Shown in pieces: positions 55,310-60,068 of a stretch of DNA of 64,000 bases. Every line of letters starts with the position of its first letter. The first letter of the stretch is position 1. Source of the DNA: Chryseobacterium sp. Leaf201 (GTDB taxonomy: Bacteria > Bacteroidota > Bacteroidia > Flavobacteriales > Weeksellaceae). Both the position numbers and the translations under genes were made by a program. The DNA lies in contig NZ_LMKA01000057.1 of NCBI RefSeq assembly GCF_001421435.1, positions 1 to 64,000 on the forward strand, given 5' to 3'. The notes below the pieces were generated by a model that was given only the letters and a program-made list of their open reading frames with translations, was not told the origin of the DNA and searched no databases.

Positions 55310-55437
55310 TTGGTAAAAAAAAGATTTTTATCATACTTTTCACTAATTTTCATATGTTTTAATCTGAATGCAGAACAATGCCATATTGCCGGGAAATATT
55401 GATAAACGGTTATATCGATACATTGTTACATTATTTC

Positions 55438-55445
55438 TATATTTG
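55438..55445 (+). promoter_or_regulatory. TATATTTG -7 element before ribF
   Basis: Exact TAnnTTTG match 20 bases before the TTG start codon at 55465. It excludes the upstream ATG at 55378 as the true start. No FMN riboswitch was seen. Confidence 0.6.
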
Positions 55446-55464
55446 CAGTCAAATTTTTTCCGTT

Positions 55465-56385
55465 TTGAAAGTTTTCAGAAATTTCTCAGATTATTCTTCC
55501 CACAGGCCTTTAGCACTATCTTTAGGGATGTTTGACGGGGTCCATCTCGGGCACAAAAGCATTATTGATACGCTGATAAACGTAGGTAAAGAAAATAATC
55601 TGGAAACGGCAGTGCTTACTTTCTGGCCGCATCCGAGATTTGTTTTCAATCCGAATGAAGACCTGAAGCTGCTGAATACCGTGGAAGAAAAAAAATTCCT
55701 GATGGAAAAATACGGCATCGGCAATTTATTTCTGAAAGAGTTTGATGAAGAATTCCGGAATCTGACCGGTGAAGAGTTTGTCCGCCGGATTTTAATTGAA
55801 AAACTGCATGTGAAATATCTGATCATCGGATATGACCATTCTTTCGGAAAGAACAAAAGCGGGAATTTCGAACTGCTGCAAAAACTGTCACAGGAACTGG
55901 ATTTTGAAGTGGAACAGATGGAAGCCGTCAACATCCACGAAAATAATATCAGTTCTACCAAGATCAGGAATGCCCTTTCCGCCGGCGATATCAGAAAAGC
56001 CAATGAAATGCTGGGTTACTCCTACTCTGTTTCCGGAACTGTGGTTCACGGAAAGAAAATCGGAAGGACAATTGGCTACCCTACAGCCAACATCGATACA
56101 AATTCTATTAAACTTCTGCCTAAAAAAGGGGCTTACATTGTTGAAGTCTTTGTCAACGGCCTGCAGTATAAAGGAATGCTGAGTGTGGGGACAAATCCAA
56201 CGGTAAACGGTGAAAAACTAACGGTTGAAGTCTATATCATTAATTTTGACCAAGATATTTATGGTGAAAATATTACCGTAAAGTTCAGGGATTTCCTTCA
56301 TGATGAAATTAAATTTGAAGGACTGGAGAAGCTGATTGAAAGACTGGATGAAGATAAAAAATTGGCAGAGGAATTTGAATTTTAA
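55465..56385 (+). CDS. ribF: Bifunctional riboflavin kinase/FAD synthetase
   Basis: A 306-residue enzyme. The N-terminal FMN adenylyltransferase domain has GMFDGVHLGHK (about 22-32), TFWPHPRFVF, GYDHSFGKNKSGN and STKIRNAL. The C-terminal riboflavin kinase domain (about 180-300) has GRTIGYPTANI and the GAYIVEV strand. It makes FMN and FAD from riboflavin. TTG at 55465 is chosen because a -7 box precedes it and the extra 29 upstream residues are not family-like. The last 210 bases of this gene are present again, degraded, at 58131-58336. Confidence 0.94.
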   Translation: MKVFRNFSDYSSHRPLALSLGMFDGVHLGHKSIIDTLINVGKENNLETAVLTFWPHPRFVFNPNEDLKLLNTVEEKKFLMEKYGIGNLFLKEFDEEFRNLTGEEFVRRILIEKLHVKYLIIGYDHSFGKNKSGNFELLQKLSQELDFEVEQMEAVNIHENNISSTKIRNALSAGDIRKANEMLGYSYSVSGTVVHGKKIGRTIGYPTANIDTNSIKLLPKKGAYIVEVFVNGLQYKGMLSVGTNPTVNGEKLTVEVYIINFDQDIYGENITVKFRDFLHDEIKFEGLEKLIERLDEDKKLAEEFEF

Positions 56386-56462: not shown

Positions 56463-57293
56463 TTAATCTTCTAATTCAATAGGATTTTGTGCTTTTTTTT
56501 GCGCTTCATTTATTTTTTGCCGCTCACGCAAATTATCTTTCGGATCCTGTGAAAATATCGTACCCATGCTTTCTAATTGGTATTTAGCATTTTCCCTGAA
56601 ATTTACCCTTGCCTGAACTAATTCTTTTTTTGTTACTACTTTTGCGCTTTGAAAATGCTCCATATTTATTGGTACCGTTTTTCCCTTCAAATTAGAACTT
56701 GATACAGACTTTACCAATTCAAAATCATAGTCTCCCGTTTTATCCGTTATTTTCACAATTAAGCCCGGAAGACCACTAAATTTATAGGGGCCATAAGGAA
56801 GAGGAATTTCGGTTGAATACCAGGCAATCCAATCTCTGCCTTTGTATCTTACCTCTGCTTTTTTACAGGCAATAGAATTAATTATCTTGGTTTCATTAAT
56901 CAGCTTCCAATTATCAATTACTGAACTGTTATAAGATAGCAACGTTATTCCTATTGACTCGTAAAATTGAGAATTATTATTTGTTTGGATAATTAGAAAA
57001 CTTGATCCTGCAGATATATTACTCAAATTAATATTGTCAGGACGCTTATTAAATTCGGCAATAAAAACGGAGTCAAACTTTAATTTATTTTCACTGATAA
57101 AAAAGGCCCGTTTATCACTTATTTGTAAGGAAAAAAGTTCCTTAGTAATATGTTCCCTATTTAAATTGTTAGGAATATATTGAAGTAAATAAGTGAATTT
57201 TCCTTTTAAGGAGTCACTCATAGTTGTTTGAGAAAACGATATAGAGTAAAAGAATAAAAATGTAACTGTTAAAAAAAATTTTATAAAATTCAT
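56463..57293 (-). CDS. GLPGLI family protein, copy 1
   Basis: A 276-residue secreted protein of the GLPGLI family, a Bacteroidota-restricted group with unknown function. Signal peptide at 1-21 (SISFSQ). The naming motif is in FSGLPGLIVKI (about 180), preceded by KKAEVRYKGRDWIAWYST and PLPYGPY. The last 40 residues are charged, with a RERQKINEAQKKAQNP block that is also conserved in copy 2. It lies downstream of the Cys-containing peptide gene at 57437 on the same strand, with a 13-bp-arm inverted repeat in between. By eye it is clearly related to copy 2 but far from identical. Confidence 0.93.
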   Translation of the reverse strand: MNFIKFFLTVTFLFFYSISFSQTTMSDSLKGKFTYLLQYIPNNLNREHITKELFSLQISDKRAFFISENKLKFDSVFIAEFNKRPDNINLSNISAGSSFLIIQTNNNSQFYESIGITLLSYNSSVIDNWKLINETKIINSIACKKAEVRYKGRDWIAWYSTEIPLPYGPYKFSGLPGLIVKITDKTGDYDFELVKSVSSSNLKGKTVPINMEHFQSAKVVTKKELVQARVNFRENAKYQLESMGTIFSQDPKDNLRERQKINEAQKKAQNPIELED

Positions 57294-57309
57294 AATCTTT
57301 TCTTTATAA

Positions 57310-57372
57310 AGAACCGCTCAAAGTTTTATAAAGGTTTTGTAAAGCAACTTAAATTGTTGTTTGAGCGGTTCT
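57310..57372. repeat. Inverted repeat between peptide and GLPGLI genes, copy 1
   Basis: Perfect 13-bp arms AGAACCGCTCAAA (57310-57322) and TTTGAGCGGTTCT (57360-57372) flank a 37-base loop that holds a small internal CAAC/GTTG stem. On the minus strand it could form in the transcript 64 bases after the peptide stop, as an attenuator or stabiliser. Confidence 0.8.
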
Positions 57373-57436
57373 ATGATTATTATTTCATGATAATTCCATT
57401 AATCAGGGTTGACCCTATGTTGGAAGTAAGCAGTAA

Positions 57437-57733
57437 TTAAGGCGTAAAAGGACTATTAATCATGCAATAATTATTTTGAATTTGCTGTCCCCACTCAGCC
57501 CATTGTTGAGCAGTCCAATCCTGACAGGTATATGCAGAGGTACAGGTTACTGTTACAGTTGCACACTGTCGTTTTTTCACAACTTTAGTTTCTAAGGTTG
57601 TTTTGTTTTTGTTTTTTGAAGTAACTTCTTTCTTACTGTTTGATTTTTTATCATTCTCATACTTTGGAGTAACCGTATTTGCACTTACGGCTACTGTTGC
57701 CAAAATTCCGGCTAGTAAAATTATTTTTTTCAT
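57437..57733 (-). CDS. Small secreted Cys-containing peptide, intact
   Basis: A 98-residue protein with a Sec signal peptide (cleavage near residue 18, VSA), a Lys/Asn/Ser-rich linker (about 25-55) and a core of about 40 residues with four Cys. The core signature is QDWTAQQWAEWGQQIQNNYC. The same signature ends the pseudogene at 59286-59498, which has a double-glycine leader instead. It sits directly upstream of a GLPGLI gene. I do not recognise a named family. A toxin, bacteriocin-like or signalling peptide is possible but unproven. Confidence 0.72.
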   Translation of the reverse strand: MKKIILLAGILATVAVSANTVTPKYENDKKSNSKKEVTSKNKNKTTLETKVVKKRQCATVTVTCTSAYTCQDWTAQQWAEWGQQIQNNYCMINSPFTP

Positions 57734-57817
57734 TGTAATAAATTTTAAAATTAAATTTAAGTTTTGTGTTTAAGCTTTTTGCGCAATTAGTTTCAACACC
57801 TCAAAGAAAAACAAAAA

Positions 57818-57847
57818 ATGTGGTATAACAAATATTTTTTATCACAT
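57818..57847 (-). promoter_or_regulatory. Palindrome upstream of peptide gene, copy 1
   Basis: ATGTGGTA (57818-57825) and TATCACAT (57840-57847) are near-perfect inverted arms (one mismatch) 14 bases apart. The arms and spacing are identical at 59578-59607 in the second copy, while part of the loop differs, as expected for a regulator site. Confidence 0.5.
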
Positions 57848-57933
57848 ATTATTGAAAAATTTATTATGTTAAACAACATTAATACAGCTAGTTATAATGC
57901 TTTATAATATAATAAGTAATAAAAATAAACTGT

Positions 57934-58130
57934 TTATATTACAAAAAACCATGTAGGAGAATTCTCAATTCCATCTTTTGCTTTTTTTGTCAATAAATTG
58001 ATCAGATTTCTTTTCAGACCATCTGTAAGAACAGAATTCCAGTGGGTTTTATTCATGTGAAAGACGCCTGTAATCTGCGGATACGGCTCACGGAGATCAG
58101 CACTCCAATCAGGACCGATTTCTATATTGA
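57934..58130 (-). pseudogene. Truncated MmcQ/YjbR gene fragment
   Basis: On the minus strand this codes the C-terminal half of the intact YjbR protein at 59709, with shared blocks DWSADLREPYPQITG, HMNKTHWNSVLTDGLKR and LTKKAKDGIENS. About eleven residues (around KLIDQSYELVF) are deleted and the original stop is lost, so the frame runs on to 57934. The 5' half is missing and is replaced by ribF-derived sequence at 58131, so the 90-codon open frame across it is chimeric and not a real gene. Confidence 0.9.
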
Positions 58131-58336
58131 AGGAATGCTGAGTGTGGGTACAAACCCAACGGTAAACGGTGAAAAAACTAACAGTTGAAGTCTGTATCAT
58201 CAATTTTGACGAAGATAGTTATGGTGAATATACTACTGTCAAGTTAAGGATTTCCTTTATGATGAAATTAAATTTGAAGGACTGGAGAAGCTGATTGAAA
58301 GACTGGATGAAAATAAAGATTAACCGAGAATTTTAT
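58131..58336 (+). pseudogene. Truncated ribF 3' fragment
   Basis: This segment repeats the ribF 3' end (56171-56385) with many substitutions. An extra A in the GAAAAAACTAA stretch and a missing G near 58240 shift the frame. It begins exactly where the YjbR fragment ends and marks the junction of the tandem units. Confidence 0.9.
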
Positions 58337-58354
58337 TTTTTAAGATTTGATTTA

Positions 58355-59224
58355 TTACTCAATAATCAGCTCCAGCGGATTTGCATATTTCTCGTTTTCC
58401 TCTCTTTGTTTTTCTCTCTGTCTTAACATTTCCTGTCCTTTTATAATGGTGGTTCCATAACTTGCCAATACTCCGGCTGCATTAGCCGCAGCATTTCTTA
58501 CCGCTTCTTTCAGTTTCAGTTGCGTCGTTTCTATGGCTCCGGTATATCTTGTTTTCTTAATATTGATTACTTTGCCCTTTAATTGAGAGTTAGGTACGGA
58601 GTTTACCAGTTCAAAATCAAAATCTCCTTTATCATCTGTTATTTTAATGATCAATCCGGGTAATCCGCTGAATTTCAACGGACCGTAAGGAAACGGAATT
58701 TCGGGGGAATACCATGCAATCCAGTTTCTTCCTTTAAAGGTAACTTCTGCTTTTTTACAAGTAATCGTATTGATTATTTTTGCTTCATCAACAAGTTTCC
58801 AGTTCTTGATTACCGGCTCTTTATAAGTAAGTAATGCCATTCCGGCATAGTCGAAATACTCAACCTTATCATTTGACTGGATAATGGTAAAATTAAAATT
58901 TGTTTTTGGAATCCCTACTCCTTTTTTCCAGCCAAGCGTTATGCTTCCATCAGGATTATGTGTTGTTGTCCCGGAAACCGCCATCACAGAATCACTTTTT
59001 AAGGACACTGTATTAGCAAAAAAGGCACGATTATCAGAAATTTGTAACAAAAATGAATCTTCGCTCCTGTGATCAGTGCGCTTATCAAATTTAGCTTTTA
59101 CAAAATATATAAATTCACCACGCAAAGAATCATGTTGGTTTGTTTGGGCAGAAGATAAGACAGTAATAAATAAGATTAATAGTTGAAGGAATTTTCCACA
59201 GAGATTCATAGACAGTATTTTCAT
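58355..59224 (-). CDS. GLPGLI family protein, copy 2
   Basis: A 289-residue secreted protein. Signal peptide spans about 1-27 (VLSSAQ), if translation starts at ATG 59224; ATG 59209 is an alternative, and the TTG at 59248 lies inside an inverted repeat and is unlikely. FSGLPGLIIKI, KKAEVTFKGRNWIAWYSP and PFPYGPL correspond to copy 1, with a KITDDKGDFDFEL block. The N-terminal third and the C-terminus differ much more from copy 1. Downstream is the ribF fragment; upstream is the peptide pseudogene. Family function unknown. Confidence 0.92.
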   Translation of the reverse strand: MKILSMNLCGKFLQLLILFITVLSSAQTNQHDSLRGEFIYFVKAKFDKRTDHRSEDSFLLQISDNRAFFANTVSLKSDSVMAVSGTTTHNPDGSITLGWKKGVGIPKTNFNFTIIQSNDKVEYFDYAGMALLTYKEPVIKNWKLVDEAKIINTITCKKAEVTFKGRNWIAWYSPEIPFPYGPLKFSGLPGLIIKITDDKGDFDFELVNSVPNSQLKGKVINIKKTRYTGAIETTQLKLKEAVRNAAANAAGVLASYGTTIIKGQEMLRQREKQREENEKYANPLELIIE

Positions 59225-59232
59225 GGTAAAAT

Positions 59233-59269
59233 TGCACTTATAGTGCAATAATTGTCCACTATAAGTGCA
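59233..59269. repeat. Inverted repeat between peptide pseudogene and GLPGLI gene, copy 2
   Basis: Perfect 13-bp arms TGCACTTATAGTG (59233-59245) and CACTATAAGTGCA (59257-59269) with an 11-base loop. The sequence differs from the copy 1 inverted repeat although the position is equivalent. Confidence 0.8.
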
Positions 59270-59285
59270 TAATTTAGATTACTTT

Positions 59286-59498
59286 TTATGCGTAATTTTG
59301 AGTAGGCCCACTGTAGGTTGGTTTAGGACAATAGTTTGCTTCAATTTTATCACGCCACTCACTCGCCTGTTGTGGAGTCCAATCCTGAGTAGTTGTAGCA
59401 GTAAAACCACAAGAAGTTTCTGCGAATCATTTTTGTGGTAATTTCCCACCATTTACTATTTTAAGTTCATTTCGTGATAATTTCTTTAAATTTTTTAT
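59286..59498 (-). pseudogene. Decayed double-glycine-leader peptide gene
   Basis: On the minus strand the frame reads KNLKKLSRNELKIVNGG, a bacteriocin-type double-glycine leader, then a core ending TQDWTPQQASEWRDKIEANYC and a short tail. The codon where MKNLKKLSR normally starts is ATA, not ATG, and a TGA stop interrupts the frame five codons after the GG. The core shares QDWT-QQ-EW-I-NYC with the intact peptide at 57437. Two defects make translation unlikely; readthrough or recoding cannot be excluded. Confidence 0.8.
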
Positions 59499-59708: not shown

Positions 59709-60068
59709 TTAGGTGTTAGAATTCTCAATTTCCTCTTTTGCTTTTTTGGTCAGTGAATTAAACACCAGTTCATATGACTGGTCAATGAGCTTCAGGATTA
59801 GATCCCTTTTCAGTCCATCTGTAAGGACAGAATTCCAATGGGTTTTATTCATATGAAAGGCACCTGTAATCTGCGGATACTGTTCACGGAGCTCAGCACT
59901 CCATTCAGGGTCTGTTTTTACATTGATTCCCAAAGGCTGTTTTTCAAGAGCCATCAGCAGGAACATCTTTGTCCCTACTTTCAGGACGAGGGTTTCATTG
60001 TCAAACGGAAAACTTTCCGTTACTCCTTTTTTAGCGAGGCAGTAGTCTAAAATTTCGTTGGCATCCAT
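59709..60068 (-). CDS. MmcQ/YjbR family protein
   Basis: A 119-residue intact member of the MmcQ/YjbR (CyaY-like fold) family. Signature elements are ESFPFDNETLVLKVG near residue 20, FLLMALEKQPLGINVKTDPE, and HMNKTHWNSVLTDG, where the His and Trp are conserved. The role is uncertain; some members are annotated as DNA-binding. It is divergent from the NAD(P)-binding protein gene. Its 3' half is present again as a fragment at 57934-58130. Confidence 0.9.
   Translation of the reverse strand: MDANEILDYCLAKKGVTESFPFDNETLVLKVGTKMFLLMALEKQPLGINVKTDPEWSAELREQYPQITGAFHMNKTHWNSVLTDGLKRDLILKLIDQSYELVFNSLTKKAKEEIENSNT

What the first reader, a model, noticed from the sequence alone, without database searches (positions are those of the whole stretch)
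56463..59498. Candidate system: small Cys peptide paired with a GLPGLI protein
Both units carry, in the same order and strand, a small exported peptide gene followed by a GLPGLI gene. The peptide cores share QDWT-QQ-EW-I-NYC. GLPGLI proteins have no known function. A stable pairing would suggest that the GLPGLI protein processes, exports, binds or gives immunity to the peptide.
Basis: partly seen in the sequence, partly recalled or inferred. Interest (0 to 1): 0.8.

Follow-up and report, generated by a model that had tools for sequence, protein, structure and literature searches.

The report
Mobile Cys-peptide and GLPGLI gene pair
A small exported cysteine peptide and a periplasmic protein of unknown function (GLPGLI) travel together as a two-gene cassette through Chryseobacterium genomes, which gives an orphan protein family a testable role, most likely self-protection against the peptide or delivery of it.

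Summary
The pairing is real. The core (QDWT..QQ..EW..I..NYC) was searched for without reference to GLPGLI in 296 genomes. All 61 hits outside the own genome with E<=1e-4 have a GLPGLI gene directly downstream; the 60 loci fetched lie at 31 chromosomal sites and share no other neighbour. A second four-Cys peptide family gives 15 of 15 in 9 genera (own genome included).

The unit 2 peptide is a relic (ATA for ATG, in-frame TGA) with a double-glycine leader; unit 1 has a Sec leader. Relatives carry the same core under either leader, joined exactly at the core boundary. The converse fails: most GLPGLI genes have no peptide neighbour.

GLPGLI is predicted (pLDDT 90) to be a bowl-shaped exported protein, closest to the N-terminal domain of PNGase F-II (Z 16), then LolA/RseB. 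A stem-loop lies between the genes. The peptide is clearly broken beside an intact partner at 9 loci, the reverse at 2, as expected of a peptide and its immunity protein; carrier/chaperone is the main rival. Nothing was assayed. No paper found describes the pair.

The parts
57437..57733 (-). Unit 1 peptide precursor, 98 aa: Sec-type signal (by eye), K/R-rich pro-region, four-Cys core from Q56 (C57, C64, C70, C90)
   Evidence: ORF; core family in 57 of 296 genomes at E<=0.01, five of these by chance hits only; median dN/dS 0.367 for type A; core modelled as strands plus helix at pLDDT about 80, whole model 60
56463..57293 (-). Unit 1 GLPGLI protein, 276 aa, signal peptide (by eye), bowl fold, C-terminal NPIEL tail
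   Evidence: TIGR01200 149.9 bits; AlphaFold2 pLDDT 90.5; PNGF-II N-terminal domain Z 16; tail conserved in at least 90% of A4
57312..57370 (-). Inverted repeat between peptide 1 and GLPGLI 1: 11-bp stem AACCGCTCAAA/TTTGAGCGGTT, 37-base loop
   Evidence: read from the sequence; the scan, limited to loops of 3-25 bases, could not see it and scored 10 for another repeat here, below its threshold of 11
59286..59498 (-). Unit 2 peptide relic: double-glycine leader and two-Cys core; ATA for ATG, in-frame TGA at 59427-59429
   Evidence: NF047798 31.8 bits; core match with 1 TGA
58355..59224 (-). Unit 2 GLPGLI protein, 289 aa, intact
   Evidence: TIGR01200 152.8 bits; dN/dS 0.155 against the partner in L129
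59233..59269 (-). Stem-loop between peptide 2 and GLPGLI 2: 13-bp perfect stem TGCACTTATAGTG/CACTATAAGTGCA, then a T-rich stretch
58130..58330 (+). ribF 3'-end fragment in the middle of the tandem
   Evidence: 91.5% to the own ribF; about 80% or less in the other slot loci printed
57808..58130 (-). yjbR 3'-end fragment in the middle of the tandem
   Evidence: repeats D2/D3; 79% to the own yjbR over the stretch, other slot loci about 67-68% over the same length, shorter pieces up to 83%
55378..56385 (+). ribF, intact, one border of the slot
   Evidence: the name is recalled, not scanned; synteny in 12 slot loci
59709..60068 (-). yjbR/MmcQ gene, intact, other border of the slot
   Evidence: PF04237 105 bits

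Best explanation
Each unit is a two-gene cassette: a small disulfide peptide exported out of the cytoplasm, and an exported GLPGLI protein that binds that peptide. Shown by sequence: the linkage, the leader swap at the core boundary, the spread over 31 sites, the stem-loop between the genes, selection on both genes. Shown by prediction only: the bowl fold. Inferred: the peptide is an antibacterial (bacteriocin-like) peptide that acts from the periplasmic side of close relatives, and GLPGLI is the cognate immunity protein, which captures it in its bowl. The stem-loop would keep the partner below the level of the peptide. The linkage I hold at about 0.95; the number given here is for the immunity mechanism.
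For: Peptide hits with E<=1e-4 never lack GLPGLI: 61 of 61, against 3 of 29 for best-scoring double-glycine leaders taken without regard to core and 0 of 6 for weak chance hits of the same search. GLPGLI exists without peptide: 5 of 14 close partner genes with a readable upstream stretch have none in the 480 bases read by eye. Decay is lopsided: of 62 loci, peptide clearly broken and GLPGLI intact at 9 (two more, L112 and L122, have a damaged leader or start); GLPGLI broken and peptide intact at 2 (L108, L125); L103 has a frameshifted GLPGLI and a doubtful peptide start; L128 lost parts of both, although GLPGLI is roughly three to four times longer. GLPGLI beside broken peptides is still constrained (dN/dS 0.07-0.21, 9 pairs). 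Both leader types carry the core past the inner membrane and GLPGLI has a signal peptide, so they should meet outside the cytoplasm. In own contig C88 a GLPGLI follows its double-glycine peptide in a cluster with a VKOR/thioredoxin-fold protein, an ABC transporter and HlyD; GLPGLI lies within 1.5 kb of that VKOR gene in 7 of 30 loci, the own one included.
Against: Loci L108 and L125 (and L103) have a frameshifted GLPGLI beside a peptide gene that is intact (doubtful in L103), which strict immunity forbids; sequencing error or another GLPGLI in the genome could excuse them, not tested. No antibacterial activity is known. A carrier or chaperone would also be needed by every peptide. Most GLPGLI genes have no peptide: 7 of 20 in the own genome do, two of these degenerate or unclear, and several elsewhere sit beside large genes that look, by eye, like outer-membrane receptors. 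Recent peptide losses may not have had time to drag the partner down.
Confidence: 0.45

Rival explanations
1. GLPGLI is a dedicated periplasmic chaperone or carrier, LolA-like, that folds the peptide, protects it or hands it to the outer membrane; the peptide may be antibacterial or not.
For: Fold nearest, after PNGF-II, to LolA/RseB carriers and sensors (Z about 8-9). Sec-type peptides need a way past the outer membrane and the cassette holds no transporter. Some other GLPGLI genes lie beside large genes that look like outer-membrane receptors (by eye). GLPGLI near a VKOR gene in 7 of 30 loci.
Against: Double-glycine peptides would go out directly through an ABC exporter (general knowledge), so a periplasmic carrier seems superfluous for them, yet they have the same partner. 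GLPGLI is kept when the peptide is broken (9 loci).
Confidence: 0.3
2. The peptide is a signal and GLPGLI a periplasmic receptor, RseB-like, that passes it on to a regulator encoded elsewhere.
For: RseB and MucB are among the fold matches (Z 8.3 and 7.6); the core is conserved across alleles.
Against: No sensor or regulator gene is conserved among the two nearest genes on each side at 31 sites.
Confidence: 0.1
3. Modified RiPP: GLPGLI is a maturation factor acting on the peptide outside the cytoplasm.
For: Chryseobacterium makes RiPPs (PMC10214503, listing only); a weak match of peptide 1 to the chryseobasin precursor (18 bits, cut-off 50); GLPGLI next to a double-glycine peptide and a putative ATP-grasp gene in own C116 (L015, not scanned); a TIGR04149 RiPP leader in frame with GLPGLI in L257.
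Against: No modification enzyme is conserved among the nearest genes at the 31 sites; the chryseobasin match covers residues 4-64, mostly signal and pro-region.
Confidence: 0.08
4. Hitch-hiking: the two genes are merely co-inherited by descent or by chance.
For: Nearly all loci of the first family are from one genus, so they are not fully independent.
Against: 31 sites, slots without the cassette in relatives, and a second peptide family in 9 genera with the same partner.
Confidence: 0.03

Closest known systems
GLPGLI family (TIGR01200; Pfam Porph_ging PF09697)
   Same: Both window proteins are members above the curated cut-offs
   Different: The family has no known function; only some sub-lineages are tied to peptides
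N-terminal bowl-like domain of PNGase F-II (PF22252; PDB 4r4z, 4r4x, 7zgn)
   Same: Same predicted fold (Z 16.0, 171 residues); profile link at E 0.005; the own PNGase F-II-like protein passes TIGR01200 (67 bits) and the GLPGLI part of L257 passes PF22252 (30.6, cut-off 27.6)
   Different: Fused to a glycosidase there; function unknown in PMC9522356 (passages seen); window proteins stand alone and were not listed for PF22252 at E<=1
LolA/LolB and RseB/MucB
   Same: Half-barrel fold (Z about 7-9)
   Different: About 4-14% identity; partner here is a small peptide gene
Bacteroidetocins (PMC6671954, passages seen)
   Same: Double-glycine leader, Cys-containing peptide of about 42 aa, Bacteroidota
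   Different: Their four-gene region holds TM protein, thiol oxidoreductase and peptidase transporter, and no obvious immunity gene; the cassette has none of these and has GLPGLI
leader_Chryseo 'bacteriocin-like protein' (NF047798)
   Same: Leader of the unit 2 relic and of a type-B relative scanned (40.9 bits)
   Different: The model covers only the 18-residue leader; unit 1 has a Sec-type leader under the same core
Chryseobasin precursor ChrA (NF050124)
   Same: Chryseobacterium precursor; weak similarity, mostly in the signal and pro-region
   Different: 18 bits against a cut-off of 50; no modification enzyme conserved beside the cassette

Membership tests
GLPGLI family | score above the TIGR01200 cut-off of 50 bits | tested here: met
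   149.9 and 152.8 bits
leader_Chryseo double-glycine peptides | NF047798 leader above 23.5 bits, unit 2 relic | tested here: met
   31.8 bits
leader_Chryseo double-glycine peptides | NF047798 leader above 23.5 bits, unit 1 peptide | tested here: not met
   not listed at E<=1
leader_Chryseo double-glycine peptides | an intact, translatable precursor (unit 2) | tested here: not met
   ATA for ATG and in-frame TGA
Class II bacteriocin with immunity | antibacterial activity and specific protection | not testable with these tools
   needs an assay; only the asymmetry of loss speaks to it
Class II bacteriocin with immunity | own peptidase-containing exporter beside the peptide | tested here: not met
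   no exporter conserved among the nearest genes at the 31 sites; one cluster in own C88, with other peptides, has an ABC transporter
Bacteroidetocin | region with TM protein, thiol oxidoreductase and C39 transporter | tested here: not met
   against PMC6671954
LolA/LolB carriers | LolA-type fold | tested here: inconclusive
   Z 7-9, near the level of common arrangements
PNGase F-II N-terminal domain superfamily | same fold and sequence profile | tested here: inconclusive
   fold Z 16; the sequence link passes cut-offs only for relatives, not for the window proteins
Chryseobasin RiPP precursor | NF050124 above 50 bits | tested here: not met
   18 bits

The most novel reading that the evidence does not exclude
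GLPGLI proteins include a large, so far unrecognised class of periplasmic bowl-fold immunity (or peptide-capture) proteins for a superfamily of small four-Cys peptides of Bacteroidota, C-x6-C-x5/6-C-x18-22-C. The precursors swap between Sec and double-glycine export leaders and move as two-gene cassettes; orphan GLPGLI genes would be cross-protection against neighbours.
Probability: 0.35. Interest if true: 0.88.

Novelty: new variant of a known kind. Interest (0 to 1): 0.75.

Why it matters
GLPGLI proteins are widespread in Bacteroidota (89 of 119 sampled genomes of the class at E<=0.001, 42 of 119 above the cut-off; 21 hits in this one genome) and have no function in print as far as the library shows (3 papers hold the word; passages of two seen, both list the proteins among regulated genes; the third seen as a listing only). 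A fixed genetic partner turns an orphan family into a testable pair: a peptide short enough to synthesise and a soluble protein. The same core under Sec and double-glycine leaders is a natural export-swap experiment. The link to the bowl-like domain of PNGase F-II offers a lead on another domain of unknown function.

Tried and rejected
Two window units as independent evidence: rejected, tandem of one slot. Simple recent duplication of one unit: rejected, because the two GLPGLI genes fall in different deep clades, each nearest to other species' alleles of the same slot. GLPGLI as a general peptide partner: rejected. In the named sample 13 of 100 GLPGLI genes had a qualifying small ORF upstream, against 8 of 471 other genes and 5 of 87 other genes with a Sec-type start (the method missed broken or mis-started peptides). 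A second version of that control, with a looser pattern for double-glycine leaders, was spoilt by iron-sulfur assembly genes that fit the pattern (named from recall); as run it gave 13 of 100 against 38 of 475 (p 0.08) and, for the class sample, 4 of 51 against 1 of 84 (p 0.07), and against Sec-type genes 5 of 85 (p 0.08) and 1 of 34 (p 0.33). Two further peptides from other families found no relatives beyond their own genomes (f38: 3 genomes searched; f39: 101 genomes), so pairing there rests on one or two genomes a family. First dN/dS run had the wrong frame for unit 1 of the window; redone for the peptides, while the GLPGLI medians quoted are. The first tally of broken genes counted L103, L112 and L122 as having intact peptides; a recheck shows a lost or moved start in L103 and L122 and a shortened leader in L112, and the report is mended. 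Covariation of the stem-loop was counted on 29 stems chosen for pairing, so it leans towards pairing. Peptide model pLDDT 60 overall, so no fold search was made with it. No phage record matched GLPGLI 1; plasmids gave 15 records, all under 60% identity. Literature: searches; none of the titles or abstract starts listed describes the pair. In one search families not listed are not excluded.
Full report
What is there. Read along the minus strand, the window holds yjbR (60068-59709), a broken peptide frame (59498-59286), GLPGLI 2 (59224-58355), 3'-end fragments of ribF and yjbR (58330-57808), an intact peptide gene (57733-57437), GLPGLI 1 (57293-56463) and the 3' end of ribF, which is on the other strand. 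Both GLPGLI proteins pass TIGR01200 and Porph_ging. The unit 1 peptide has a Sec-type signal (by eye), a K/R-rich pro-region and a four-Cys core. The unit 2 frame reads a double-glycine leader (NF047798, 31.8 bits) and a two-Cys core, with ATA in place of ATG and an in-frame TGA at 59427-59429.

The two units are one locus. Repeats of the ribF and yjbR 3' ends show a tandem. The ribF fragment is 91.5% identical to the own ribF and about 80% or less to the other slot loci printed, so the tandem arose in or near this lineage. The two GLPGLI genes belong to two deep clades, each closest to another species' allele of the same slot (L129 82%, L091 80%). The simplest reading is two alleles of one slot brought side by side by recombination.

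Co-occurrence, tested from the peptide side. A profile of the two cores, with no GLPGLI in it, was run over 296 genomes of the family: 57 have a match at E<=0.01, five of these by chance hits only. Of 61 matches outside the own genome with E<=1e-4, 60 were fetched with up to 4 kb on each side and one lies inside L107. All 60 loci have a GLPGLI gene downstream on the same strand (truncated in L128), and so has the 61st. The nine weaker matches were fetched too: 3 have GLPGLI adjacent (genus g9), and 6 are chance hits, five of them inside longer frames, with no GLPGLI in the stretch, which serve as negative controls. With about 20 GLPGLI genes in 4.34 Mb, a GLPGLI start within 300 bp downstream on the same strand is expected about 0.07% of the time (my arithmetic). 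Looking at the two nearest genes of at least 110 aa on each side, and merging loci that share any flanking family, leaves 31 sites, the largest with 12 and 9 loci. No other neighbour is constant.

A second peptide family. The 78-aa four-Cys peptide before another own GLPGLI gene (C58) was searched in 197 genomes: 15 matches in 15 genomes of 9 genera, and 15 of 15 have GLPGLI downstream; the own row is so by construction. Some of these peptides are not intact frames (L350 has a stop). The two families share the scaffold C-x6-C-x5/6-C-x18-22-C; profile comparison links only the first 18 columns, probability 58%. In the first family C1 and C3 are present together or absent together in the 17 rows aligned, which suggests bridges C1-C3 and C2-C4 (inference).

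From the GLPGLI side the pairing is partial. In the own genome 5 of 20 GLPGLI genes have an intact small Cys peptide directly upstream, one has the relic, and one (L014) has an unclear frame. In the named sample it is 13 of 100, against 8 of 471 control genes and 5 of 87 with a Sec-type start. Outside the family, small exported Cys peptides precede GLPGLI in Flavobacterium croceum and Sinomicrobium oceani and in one or two genomes each of the unnamed families f2, f38 and f39. Of the best-scoring double-glycine leader loci attached, the 29 new ones (L307-L335) were examined and 3 have GLPGLI next, two of them QDWT peptides.

Leader swap. Type A cores (SAYTCQDW) have Sec-type leaders in every locus where the leader can be read (it is cut off in L091). 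Type B cores (SCG-TTTQDW) have mostly double-glycine leaders, but Sec-type leaders in L133, L138, L142, L143, L144, in the second hit of L107 and, more divergent, in L146 and L147. The junction is exact..VKAG|QVWIAETSCG in double-glycine relatives..LLKR|QVWIAETSCG in L133. On the partner tree of 58 rows the double-glycine label needs 2 changes, of which well-supported branches force 1. Both leader types occupy the ribF/yjbR slot in different species. Among the 30 best-matching genomes of 60 searched in the genus, the slot holds a cassette in 6 (the own one included), none of this kind in 22, and could not be read in 2; in 12 of the 22 the gap between the two matches is 3 bases, in the other 10 it is 36 to 722.

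Selection and decay. Peptide dN/dS medians are 0.367 (type A, 19 sequences, 117 pairs) and 0.332 (type B, 32 sequences, 359 pairs); GLPGLI medians are 0.165 and 0.194 (whose type-B set held the window's unit 1 by mistake). Of 62 loci (60 plus the two window units) the peptide is clearly broken and GLPGLI intact in 9 (L091, L110, L127, L131, L134, L136, L139, L142, window unit 2); L112 (short leader) and L122 (start changed) are doubtful further cases. GLPGLI is frameshifted and the peptide frame intact in 2 (L108, L125, the latter short of one core codon); in L103 GLPGLI is frameshifted and the peptide has lost its usual start. L128 lost parts of both (the script also flagged L147, where two GLPGLI genes were merged, and I count it as intact). 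Among the 15 named loci closest to GLPGLI 1 (L148-L162), L152 is cut by a contig end; of the other 14, 8 have a peptide, one (L150) has the broken one also seen as L142, and 5 have none that I recognise in 480 bases upstream (L154, L156, L158, L159, L162). At least seven of these named loci are the same contigs as loci among the 60 (equal contig lengths), so the two samples overlap.

Stem-loop. Between the peptide and GLPGLI a stem-loop scores at least 11 in 45 of 61 loci (L141 could not be placed), against 8% of 100 shuffles. Type B reads TGCACTTATAG/CTATAAGTGCA, several type A loci AATCGTTCAAA/TTTGAACGATT, usually with a T-rich stretch after it; outer and inner pairs vary with compensation (biased as said). 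It looks like an attenuator or weak terminator (inference).

The partner protein. The AlphaFold2 model from 70 sequences has pLDDT 90.5 and pTM 0.84. Best matches are the N-terminal domain of PNGF-II (Z 16.0, 171 residues) and its Bacteroides counterpart 7zgn (Z 15.6), well above LolA 9.2, RseB 8.3 and MucB 7.6. Sequence agrees: profile to PNGF-II E 0.005; the own PNGase F-II-like protein passes TIGR01200, and a GLPGLI protein of L257 passes PF22252. The function of that domain is given as unknown in PMC9522356, and its absence did not change the enzyme's activity or specificity (passages).

Context of export. Own contig C88 holds a double-glycine peptide, GLPGLI, a 503-aa VKOR/thioredoxin-fold protein, a second peptide, an ABC transporter, a third peptide and HlyD. 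Relatives of the VKOR protein are in 36 of 148 genomes; in 7 of the 30 loci examined GLPGLI lies within 1.5 kb, and in L280 and L297 the order is peptide, GLPGLI, VKOR, peptide. In L257 a TIGR04149-type leader peptide runs in frame into GLPGLI as one 326-aa frame, either a fusion or a lost stop.

Judgement. The unit is a mobile two-gene cassette. That GLPGLI binds the peptide outside the cytoplasm is the natural reading. Immunity is favoured over a carrier because the peptide was never found without the gene, while the gene outlives the peptide. The frameshifted GLPGLI genes beside peptides and the lack of any assay keep this at 0.45. The recount on checking moved the decay tally from 9 against 3 to 9 against 2 clear cases with three doubtful ones; I left the odds as they were.

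Noticed in passing
L257:7181-8161 (-), genome G325: Double-glycine RiPP-type leader peptide in one open frame with GLPGLI, inside an array of eight GLPGLI frames (two of them halves of one gene).
   Followed up: partly
L041:3224-10146 (own contig C88): Export cluster: three double-glycine peptides, GLPGLI, VKOR/thioredoxin protein, ABC transporter, HlyD.
   Followed up: partly
L021 (own contig C91): A PNGase F-II-like protein whose N-terminal domain passes the GLPGLI model, tying the two families by sequence.
   Followed up: partly
L015 (own contig C116): GLPGLI followed by a double-glycine peptide and what looks like an ATP-grasp ligase gene (recalled, not scanned).
   Followed up: no
L042:6948-8878 and L043 (own contigs C79, C113): Double-glycine peptide, an unknown protein of about 300 aa (C79 copy: no Pfam match at E<=0.01) and GLPGLI in a row, twice.
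   Followed up: no
L136; window 59496-59498; L039; L103; L122: Start codons of peptides replaced: ATA in the window relic, Ile in L136 and L103, Thr in L122, a stop codon in L039; chance decay or unusual starts.
   Followed up: no
L258, L259 (genomes G369, G331): Arrays with several Sec-type four-Cys peptides, with similar signals and different cores, interspersed with GLPGLI genes.
   Followed up: partly
genus sample: Double-glycine leader matches number 6 to 45 per genome in 38 of 40 genomes of the genus.
   Followed up: no
plasmid records: GLPGLI genes on plasmids of Riemerella, Prevotella, Flavobacterium, Chryseobacterium and others.
   Followed up: no
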